Source: an uncultured bacterium
GTDB lineage: Bacteria > Elusimicrobiota > Elusimicrobia > Elusimicrobiales > Elusimicrobiaceae
DNA: 64,000 bases
Assembly: GCA_949291515.1 (NCBI GenBank)
Contig: CASEVY010000006.1
Span: forward strand, 1 to 64,000
Direction of reading: 5' to 3'
Shown here piece after piece: positions 49,492 through 54,216 of the stretch (position 1 is its first letter; each line of letters opens with the position of its first letter). Position numbers and translations under genes: made by a program. The notes under the pieces were generated by a model. It had not been told where the DNA came from. It made no database searches and was given only the letters and a program-made list of their open reading frames with translations.

Positions 49492-52400
49492 TTAATTCCC
49501 GTTTTTATTTATTTCTTTCTTTACCGGTTTTGCTTTGGTAAAGAGTTCCTTTTTCTCATCGGGTTTATTATCGGGTTGAACATCTTCCCCTTCTTTTTCG
49601 CCGCTGGCATAAACGACTTCGGTCGCGAAGTCGAAAGATGTCCCGGCTACGGGTTCGCTTTGCGTCGCTTTTTCTTTCTGTCTTTTAAATATGGACTGAG
49701 CCAAAACCAAAGCTCCGCCGCTGAAAGCGACCGGCACAAGCACAGCCACCTGCAAAGAACCCGCCAAATCGGATACGAAGCTGAGCACTGTTCCGCCCGC
49801 GGCCGCCGCCACGGAGAAACTGAATATTAACAATGTCGTATTCGCCGCTTTTTCGCCTCTGCCTTTTAGCGCCGCGTTGAAAAGCGGCGGGAAAAGGTTC
49901 GCGTCCCCTACGAAGAACAAGGCCGCGCCCGTAAGTCCCAAAGGCGATATCCCTTCTAAAGCGAAAAGCGTCAAACCCGATAAGACCAGCCCTCCAGATA
50001 TCTTATATGTAGAGTTTGAAGAGAGTATTCCCCTCTTCTGCAGTTCTCCGCATAAAGCTCTGGCCAGGCCCATAGCAGAATATATCAGCACGCCGCCAAG
50101 TATGTTCGGCATATCGGACAATGCTCCGTAATGCTCCTGCGCCATGGAAAATACGAGTAAAGATGTCGTTAATTCGCCGGCTTCTATCAGAGCGAACGAT
50201 ATCGCCGCTTTTCTTGCCTCGGAATCTTTAAGGAACATTTTTACAAGCCCTTTTATCCCGCCGTCTTCTTTAGTTTCCGGCAGCGGTACGTCCTTGAAGT
50301 TCCCTCTGAATATGCTGTTTACCGCCAAAAGGCTTAGCGGCGCAAGAAGCAAGGGAAAGGTTATAGCATTGTTTACTTCTCCGAAACCCAATGCCTCCGA
50401 AGCGAAATTAAGCAGAGGTCCGAATTCCAAAAACAATATCGTTCCCAAACTTCTGGCCATAGCCGTCTGAGTCGTCAGCGACAATGCTTTTTGCGTATCG
50501 AAATTCGTATCTATCAAGGGGTATATCGTCGAGTATTTTATCTCGTTGGAAAGCGATATGAGCGATATGCCCGCAAGGGAGCTTATTAAACCCGCTATGC
50601 TCCCGTCGTGGGTAAAGCCGTTTAATCCTCCAAGTATGGTCATAGCCACGCCGAGGAAGGTCCCCACGGATGCGGTTCTCGCCATATTGATTACGCCCCA
50701 TCTGTTAAAGAAGTATCCCATAAACGGCACCAAGCCCGCGGGCAGGTAGCTTATTAAGCTGATTATGGTGTTTGTTGTGGAGCTATCCAGCCCGTATACT
50801 TGGCTTATCATCGGGGCGGTAGCCGTTACCGTAGTCGCGGCGAGAAAGTTATACAAAAATGCCGACGGTTTGACTACATCGTCTTTCTTCTTCAAGAAAG
50901 CGGCTATTCGGCCGAACAGGCCTTCTGATTTCCCGGCTTCTTGGGACGATATCGTCGGGGCGACTTCTTCCGCCGCCGCGTCCGAAGCGCGAGCGGAAGA
51001 ATAGAAATCTCCCAATATTTCCGCCGTGGCAGAAGAACTTTCCCTTAAAAGATGCGGTCTGCCGGGCACTTCGTATACAAAAGAGGACGGATCCGTTCTA
51101 TTTTGTATAAAACCGTAGTCGTATTCTTTGACGGCTTTTGCGGTTGTTATCGGAGTTTCTGCATAAGGATTGGCCAAAATACGCCCGTCGGCATATCTAT
51201 ATACATCTCGCACGAGCATGGCGGGCATAACCACGCCCGCCGCGGCGTTTTGCAGGCCGCCGGCAAGTTTTGCCGTCCAATAAGCCGCGCCGCGCCCTTG
51301 CAGTATATTGCCGCCTATTAAAGGAATTCCGCTATAGAAATTTAATATCTTGGGGTCTACAACGTCTACGGGCTTTATGTTTTTGATGTTAAAGCCCGTT
51401 TGAGCGGCGATGTCGTAAGCGTTAAGATTAAATATATTAGCCGCTTTAACTCCGCCGCGCGTGAAATTGGCTACTTGTTCGGTAGCAGCCAACACTCTTC
51501 CGCCGTTTAGCATACCCGGAGTTACCGTCGCTACGTTATAATTTAGCAATAAGGTCGTACCGAGCACCGTGGCTTTATTATTTATTATTCTTAAGGTTTT
51601 GCCCGCTAGGCCAAGGTGATGATTATCAAGCCATTTGTAGACATTATCTATACGGTTTAGCGGCGATATTTTGGGCGAGTCGGATAAAGTCGGAGCTTTG
51701 TACTCGCCTTTTATTTTAAGTGCTTCGGCCAAGGTCGTTTCCGTTTTGCCGGAATAATTGAATATCAAGCCGTTTCCGCTTTCACTGGTCCACCAGCGGC
51801 CGAGTTTGCTGTTTTTAAGCCAATCGCCAAATCTGTTTGCGCGCGCCGTTTTGAAAGCGCTGACGCTTTTGTCGTATTTGGCCAAATTGGCTTCATATTT
51901 GCGGTATCGGGCGATATAATCACCAGCCGCTTGGCTAAGCTGCGCCGCTTTGGGCGCCTGCGGTTTTACGGCAAGTTCGGCTTTAAGCGTTTCAAGTTCT
52001 TTTAAAACCTGCTGCGCTTTGGCTTGATCGCCGCCGGCGGCTAAAGCGTTATACTGAGCCGCTTTGGTGTTGTATAGATTTACCTTGGCGTTATAGGATT
52101 TTGTCGCGGCGAGATATTTTTCGTAAATGCTTTTGTTGGTTTGGTTTACGGAATTTATCTCCGCCTCTATAGCCGCTTTTTGCTGCGCGGAGATGTTGCG
52201 CTGCGCTTTTGTTATCTCGCGTTCACTTTTTGCCAGCTTGTATTGCGCCGTCGCTTTGTCGGCTTTGGCTTTGCTGTACGCGCTTACCTTTTTGCCGGCG
52301 CTGCGCCGCGCTTTCAGCTTCGTTAATGCGCTTTTGCGGGCGTCGTAGAGCTTCTTCATTCTAAGATTGTCCGCTTTTATCGCCGCTATGTTTACCCCTT

Positions 52401-54216: not shown

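What the first reader, a model, noticed from the sequence alone, without database searches (positions are those of the whole stretch)
49492..54216. A third, diverged member of the solenoid-MFS family with a long inserted coiled coil
The 1574-residue protein has the same overall plan as the two paralogues at 14-24 kb but a clearer MFS domain and a Lys/Ala-rich coiled coil (about residues 600-790) the others lack. It lacks the shared promoter dyad. Three such genes in 64 kb suggest an expanded, lineage-specific family whose members are regulated differently.
Basis: partly seen in the sequence, partly recalled or inferred. Interest (0 to 1): 0.6.

Follow-up and report, generated by a model that had tools for sequence, protein, structure and literature searches.

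The report
Modular giant membrane proteins, swapped heads
This gene is one of seven in a gut bacterium that encode giant exported proteins assembled from interchangeable parts; this one ends in a transporter-like membrane domain, carries a different kind of front end from its counterparts in related species, and alone lacks the on-switch that its six sisters share.

Summary
The ORF is real: 49492-54216, minus strand, 1574 aa, 86% identical to a full-length orthologue in another Elusimicrobiales genome. It is not simply a diverged third copy of the 14-24 kb pair. A profile finds exactly seven members in the genome, and 43 of 294 sampled genomes of the phylum, all in one taxonomic family. Shared plan: signal peptide, helical head, short hydrophobic helix with an invariant Asp, basic stretch, then an interchangeable tail (MFS-like, trypsin-like, zeta-toxin-like, others). 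The protein is a mosaic: its MFS tail is 69-73% identical to the genes at the same chromosomal site in two other species, but those carry a different head type (one-clade tree rejected, p-AU 3e-88). In the genome I take for Elusimicrobium minutum, three giant genes share 2,994 bp at 100% identity inside different proteins, which indicates recent copying of heads between loci. Six of the seven genes carry a two-part promoter element also found upstream of other exported-protein genes; this gene lacks it at all four loci checked. Likely working: head outside the inner membrane, one crossing, cytoplasmic middle, 12-helix transporter-like tail. The substrate is unknown. "Coiled coil" is unproven; the lysine/alanine-rich stretch is shared with another paralogue.

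The parts
49492..54216 (-). P0001: 1574-aa mosaic protein, ATG start
   Evidence: full-length orthologue at 86% identity in G001/CALUXD010000002.1; dN/dS 0.105
54103..54216 (-). signal peptide, residues 1-38 (hydrophobic 12-30, SYA-Q); the cleavage site is my reading
   Evidence: hydrophobic segment; the same kind of N-terminus in nearly all members with an intact start
52561..54102 (-). head, residues 39-552: all-helical, type I
   Evidence: AlphaFold2 model pLDDT 69; HEAT/ARM-like rows only, best Z 9.1; matches type I heads, E 1.6e-55
52450..53319 (-). family-defining core, residues 300-589
   Evidence: profile A3, E 1.3e-84
52498..52560 (-). short hydrophobic helix (residues 553-573) with invariant Asp554, followed by a K/R-rich stretch; proposed single membrane crossing
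   Evidence: Asp invariant in 24 of 24 rows and 28 of 28 rows; hydrophobicity and charges
51817..52419 (-). Lys/Ala-rich stretch, about residues 600-800
   Evidence: composition; no heptad signal
51187..51816 (-). middle module, residues 801-1010, shared with M08, Z09 and the G017/G005 locus-mates
   Evidence: 46-61% identity to L040 over 841-1020
50902..51186 (-). fast-evolving linker, residues 1011-1105
   Evidence: 60% identity to G001, dN/dS 0.22
49687..50901 (-). MFS-fold tail, about residues 1106-1510, 12 helices, N-in/C-in by charge
   Evidence: model pLDDT 71, pTM 0.73; FucP 3o7p E 2.2e-9, TM 0.71; 26 of 26 loop K/R on the predicted cytoplasmic side
54217..54900 (.). upstream gap without the shared promoter element
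   Evidence: best score -17.8, inside the null range
13955..18871 (+). P0002, family member with type II head and MFS-like tail (likely ATG 24 bases downstream)
19210..23925 (+). P0003, family member with type II head and MFS-like tail
13849..13914 (+). promoter element of P0002: GGTCTTAGGACC dyad, 25 bases, TTG -35, -10
19120..19185 (+). promoter element of P0003

Best explanation
P0001 belongs to a family of giant, exported, membrane-anchored modular proteins restricted to one family of gut-type Elusimicrobiota. A signal peptide sends a helical, probably HEAT/ARM-like head of about 510 residues across the inner membrane; the conserved Asp-containing helix crosses back; the basic Lys/Ala-rich stretch and the middle module lie in the cytoplasm; and the chain ends in a 12-helix MFS-fold domain with both ends in the cytoplasm. 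The most likely working is a fused receptor-transporter: the periplasmic head binds a ligand or partner and recruits substrate for, or gates, the transporter-like tail. Paralogues use the same front end with other output modules (trypsin-like protease, zeta-like kinase, WaaP-like kinase, ankyrin/TPR). Heads move between loci by recombination while tails stay at their chromosomal site; P0001 carries a type I head where its locus-mates in two related species carry type II heads. Six of the seven genes carry a common promoter element that also precedes other exported-protein genes; P0001 is outside this presumed regulon. Shown by computation: membership, chimerism, fold of the tail, charge asymmetry of the tail, purifying selection, promoter element. 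Inferred: signal-peptide function, the single crossing, the head fold. Conjecture: ligand binding, gating, transport.
For: Seven members in the genome; 43 of 294 genomes and 3 of 90 genera, all in one taxonomic family. Same chromosomal site in G001, G017 and G005 by flanking genes. Tail 73% and 69% identical to G017/G005, head about 25%, different head clade, AU p 3e-88, type I by hhalign E 1.6e-55 against 5.6e-6 for type II. Head copying in G018: 2,994 bp at 100% identity in three genes with different 5' ends and tails. MFS fold TM 0.71-0.72 and 26 of 26 loop K/R on one side. dN/dS 0.049 for the tail and 0.111 for the head. Promoter element: 8 genome hits, 0 for the reversed control; six of seven members carry it, P0001 none in 4 of 4 genomes.
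Against: The tail's Pfam score is below the curated cut-off (26.8 of 33.4) and no solved structure matches by sequence. Charges flank the Asp helix on both sides, so the single crossing is not established, and a second hydrophobic segment at 984-1002 could change the count. The head's fold is weak: no Foldseek match at E 0.001 or better, Z at most 9.1. Profiles built from one head type alone do not find the other. Trypsin-like tails would more usually be extracytoplasmic (recalled), against the cytoplasmic-tail model. No substrate or partner evidence.
Confidence: 0.45

Rival explanations
1. Polymorphic-effector family: the head is a delivery or display module and the tails are effectors (protease, kinase, ankyrin, MFS) acting on other cells or a host.
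For: Constant front end with a variable C-terminal module including zeta-toxin-like and trypsin-like domains; head copying between loci; co-occurring promoter element on exported genes.
Against: No constant small immunity-like neighbour among the flanking genes compared; genes sit at fixed sites between ordinary genes; MFS tails are the most constrained part (dN/dS 0.034-0.063), unlike fast-changing toxin tips; an integral 12-helix tail is a poor cargo.
Confidence: 0.2
2. Membrane-anchored scaffold: the MFS-fold tail is a degenerate anchor without transport, and the family organises the cell envelope.
For: Motif A lacks its usual aspartate (recalled motif; P0001 reads GYFFNRWGVINM); other members use non-membrane tails; Pfam score below cut-off.
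Against: Strong purifying selection on the tail (0.049), 69-73% identity between species against about 25% for heads, and complete charge asymmetry suggest a working transporter fold.
Confidence: 0.25
3. One reading: a third, diverged copy of the P0002/P0003 genes that gained a coiled-coil insert.
For: Same broad plan; tail similarity E 1.2e-6.
Against: Different head type, middle shared with M08/Z09 and not P0002/P0003, Lys/Ala-rich stretch shared with M08.
Confidence: 0.08

Closest known systems
Major facilitator superfamily transporters (FucP, MdfA and FLVCR among the top fold matches)
   Same: 12-helix fold, TM 0.65-0.72, N-in/C-in charge pattern
   Different: Fused behind a signal peptide and about 1,100 extra residues; sequence below Pfam's cut-off; no PDB match by sequence
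Polymorphic toxin / modular effector families (recalled)
   Same: Constant exported front end, exchangeable C-terminal domain, homogenised front ends
   Different: No immunity gene found, fixed chromosomal sites, conserved tails, integral-membrane tails
HEAT/ARM-type alpha-solenoids (karyopherins, importin alpha, catenin in the VIA list)
   Same: Superhelical all-helical arrangement, Z up to 9.1
   Different: No sequence relation; Z at the level of a common arrangement; exported head

Membership tests
Major facilitator superfamily (MFS_1, PF07690) | 12-transmembrane MFS fold | tested here: met
   Model pLDDT 71.3, pTM 0.73; FucP E 2.2e-9, TM 0.71
Major facilitator superfamily (MFS_1, PF07690) | Pfam curated score reached | tested here: not met
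   26.8 bits of 33.4 needed; so I say MFS fold, not MFS_1 member
Major facilitator superfamily (MFS_1, PF07690) | cytoplasmic N and C ends of the 12-helix unit | tested here: met
   26 K/R in predicted inside loops, 0 in outside loops
Major facilitator superfamily (MFS_1, PF07690) | loop 2-3 motif A (recalled) | tested here: inconclusive
   A Gly/Arg-containing loop is present, the acidic residue is not
Major facilitator superfamily (MFS_1, PF07690) | solute transport | not testable with these tools
   needs an experiment
P0002/P0003 solenoid-MFS family | head homologous to P0002/P0003 | tested here: met
   Distant: hhalign E 5.6e-6 against type II heads, type I against type II E 1.2e-12; but negative with P0002/P0003-type heads only and by hmmsearch across types
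P0002/P0003 solenoid-MFS family | same head type | tested here: not met
   type I and not type II
P0002/P0003 solenoid-MFS family | shared promoter element | tested here: not met
Polymorphic toxin systems | exchangeable C-terminal domain behind a constant front | tested here: met
Polymorphic toxin systems | adjacent immunity gene | tested here: not met
   no constant small neighbour among the flanking genes compared
Polymorphic toxin systems | toxicity to a competitor | not testable with these tools
   needs an experiment
HEAT/ARM solenoid | repeat superhelix | tested here: inconclusive
Coiled-coil protein | heptad periodicity | tested here: inconclusive
   period 3.5 not above shuffles, p 0.27-0.47 in four stretches

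The most novel reading that the evidence does not exclude
A lineage-restricted combinatorial receptor system: a small set of fixed chromosomal loci, each with its own cytoplasmic or membrane output module (transporter, protease, kinase), draws its periplasmic recognition head from a shared pool that is copied between loci by gene conversion, most under one promoter element, with P0001 moved outside that regulon. A bacterium could thus rewire which external signal drives which output without changing either module.
Probability: 0.3. Interest if true: 0.8.

Novelty: new variant of a known kind. Interest (0 to 1): 0.58.

Why it matters
Seven such genes occupy about 37 kb of a 1.5-Mb genome, with almost no annotation in Pfam or NCBIfam. 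Heads that are exchanged while tails stay at their loci, and a 3-kb head identical in three genes of one genome, make a clear case for module recombination in a phylum with few cultured members. The promoter element gives a direct handle on when these exported proteins are made, and the family defines testable modules in place of 'hypothetical protein'.

Tried and rejected
Simple third paralogue: rejected by head type and middle module. Assembly artefact: unlikely, since G001 carries the same full-length mosaic. Recent head copying inside the window's own genome: not found; only short stretches of about 69-78% identity are shared between its members. Polymorphic toxin with immunity gene: no constant neighbour. 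Phage origin: no pattern match in viral contigs with T07, a different member; P0001 itself and the plasmid and phage record collections were not searched. Solved relatives by sequence: none convincing. Prior description: searches (listings only) showed no paper on this family or element; the E. minutum genome paper is not held, so 'unpublished' is not claimed. A first direct comparison of P0001-type with P0002/P0003-type heads was negative and hmmsearch with one head type does not find the other; the link rests on the larger profiles, and profile A3, which mixes both types, was built before that was known.

Full report
Observation. The ORF at 49492-54216 lies on the minus strand, starts with ATG and has 1574 codons. 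A near relative, contig CALUXD010000002.1 (uncultured Elusimicrobiales bacterium BRZ_GG__bin76, which I take to be handle G001 from the contig length), holds a full-length orthologue at 86% identity, so the gene is not an assembly accident. All parts evolve under purifying selection between G000 and G001 (dN/dS 0.037-0.239), the tail most strongly of the long parts (0.049).

Family. BLAST with the protein found three further paralogues (T07, M08, Z09) outside the window besides weak tail matches. A profile of the head core (A3, 28 rows) finds exactly seven members in the 1.50-Mb genome: P0001, P0002, P0003, T07, M08, Z09 and S7. In 294 genomes sampled from the phylum (own genome included), 43 have a match at E 0.001 or better, all in the host's taxonomic family and in 3 of 90 genera. 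Genomes outside the phylum were not searched with the profile. G018, a single contig of 1,643,562 bases, is probably Elusimicrobium minutum Pei191; this identification is recalled from the genome size and was not confirmed by any search.

Modules. Conserved features are a signal-peptide-like N-terminus in nearly all members with an intact start, a helical head, an Asp at the start of a short hydrophobic helix (invariant in the 24 rows and the 28 rows; a regular expression failed to place it in 1 of 38 rows, G018c), and a basic stretch after it. Tails differ: MFS-like (P0001, P0002, P0003, M08; one search finds exactly these four in the genome), Trypsin_2 (T07; S7, two modules by motif), zeta toxin (Z09). 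Among 24 members scanned whole, 6 hit MFS_1, 5 Trypsin_2 and 2 Zeta_toxin at E 0.01. Among 20 and 19 further tails scanned at E 0.001 the counts were MFS_1 2 and 1, Trypsin_2 2 and 2, and one WaaP/Kdo-type kinase. That the kinase is the 5,570-residue member of G010 is inferred from its motif. The ankyrin/TPR tail is that of L049, cut at both contig ends.

Mosaic. Flanking genes show that G001, G017 and G005 carry a family gene at the same site as P0001. The MFS tails are 90, 73 and 69% identical to P0001's. Against the G017 gene, windows of P0001 give 6-36% identity (about 25%) for residues 1-810, 46-61% for 841-1020 and 65-90% for 1111-1500. A tree of 38 head cores splits into two types with full support; P0001 and G001 fall with type I, the G017 and G005 locus-mates with type II; holding the four together costs 100.5 log-likelihood units (p-AU 3e-88; the group was named after the difference had been noticed). 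P0001's head matches type I at E 1.6e-55 over 514 columns and type II at 5.6e-6. P0001's head is not a recent copy of T07's: identity there is about 30%. Which head was ancestral at this site is not decided.

Head copying. In G018, genes of 3965, 2741 and 2530 codons share 2,994 bp at 100.000% identity (3,095 bp for two of them) starting about 130-220 bp into each gene, with different first codons and different tails. Gene conversion or copying of a head cassette is the simplest reading. Nothing comparable occurs among the members in the window's own genome.

Tail. AlphaFold2 on the 14-row tail alignment gave pLDDT 71.3 and pTM 0.73. Foldseek against PDB returned MFS transporters throughout the listed rows, FucP first (E 2.2e-9, TM 0.71). 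With the helices of that model, 26 of 26 Lys/Arg in the loops lie on the side predicted cytoplasmic and none on the other. The N-terminus of the tail must then be cytoplasmic, while a signal peptide would place the head outside, so an odd number of crossings is needed between them; the Asp helix (residues 553-573) is the conserved candidate. This is an inference: charges flank that helix on both sides, and a weaker hydrophobic segment at 984-1002 was also flagged.

Head fold. The model is all-helical (pLDDT 69.2, pTM 0.67). Foldseek found nothing at E 0.001 or better. VIA-align lists mainly HEAT/ARM-type proteins with Z up to 9.1, which by the tool's own note may be only a common arrangement. 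'Solenoid' is plausible, not proven. The Lys/Ala-rich stretch shows no heptad signal.

Promoter element. Upstream of P0002, P0003, T07 and S7 lies GGNCNNNNGNCC exactly 37 bases before a -35 TTG with a -10 at fixed spacing. The combined pattern hits the genome 8 times and its reversed control never; the short dyad alone is not enriched in the window (8 found, 11.6 expected). In 40 genomes (own included) it hits 147 times against 7 for the control by my sum of the table; in the genus, 91 against 0. A weight matrix from 43 strict sites finds a variant 374-399 bases upstream of M08 in 5 of 5 genomes (a strict site in one of them) and another upstream of Z09 (2 of 2), all above the null maximum of -9.1 from 40 shuffles; the four P0001-locus genes score -17.8 to -20.2, inside the null. 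The matrix includes family sites, so the scores of strict sites are circular; M08 and Z09 of G000 were not in it. Of 42 distinct sites with a downstream ORF in the host's taxonomic family, 38 start with a signal-peptide-like sequence by a simple rule, against 13 of 41 window ORFs; in the sister taxonomic family 6 of 10. Many of the 42 are family members, from several genomes, so they are not independent. An exported-protein regulon is the reading; the regulator is unknown.

Working. I judge a fused periplasmic receptor plus membrane transporter most likely (0.45). Transport, ligand and gating are untested. Rivals are a structural anchor and a polymorphic effector; the latter is weakened by fixed sites, absence of a constant immunity-like neighbour, and strongly conserved tails.

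Literature. Only search listings were read. No listed paper describes this family, but the E. minutum genome paper is not held, so novelty is stated as 'not found in these searches'.

Noticed in passing
window 60317-60328; genes 58827-60227 and 57516-58814 (minus): The same dyad lies about 90 bases upstream of a gene for an exported protein without Pfam match; a second exported protein follows. Related genes lie beside the P0001 site in G017 and (the second one) G005.
   Followed up: partly
L141:3079, L142:2298 and L143:3293/4485 (oriented positions; G000 contigs C7 and C13): Four further strict promoter elements in the own genome precede exported proteins, one of them apparently ankyrin-like.
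   Followed up: partly
L163-L172 and other loci: The tandem element GGTCWWWWGACCTA-N8-TAGGTCWWWWGACC directly before a -35 occurs across the order, outside the range of the giant-protein family: possibly a phylum-level promoter class without a known regulator.
   Followed up: partly
L050:5766-17663, L093:2796-11021, L094:2380-9972 (G018): Three giant genes share about 3 kb at 100% nucleotide identity inside otherwise different genes.
   Followed up: yes
L096:2399-19111 (G010): A 5,570-codon open frame of this family, open at the contig end, with two WaaP/Kdo-kinase-like HGDLxxN motifs.
   Followed up: partly
L037:1647-6560 (G001): The T07 orthologue is split into frames of 1325 and 295 codons near the trypsin module: frameshift or assembly error.
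   Followed up: no
window 54901-55455 (+): Small exported protein (184 aa, no Pfam match) divergent from P0001; kept at this site in G001, G017 and G005 but only 38-41% identical in the latter two.
   Followed up: no
L009:1574-2533 (minus): 319-aa membrane protein without Pfam match directly downstream of Z09, 86% identical in G001.
   Followed up: no
tails of alignment A7: Single weak hits to AvrB_AvrC, Usp-48 and Response_reg among 19 tails; the members concerned were not identified and these may be chance.
   Followed up: no
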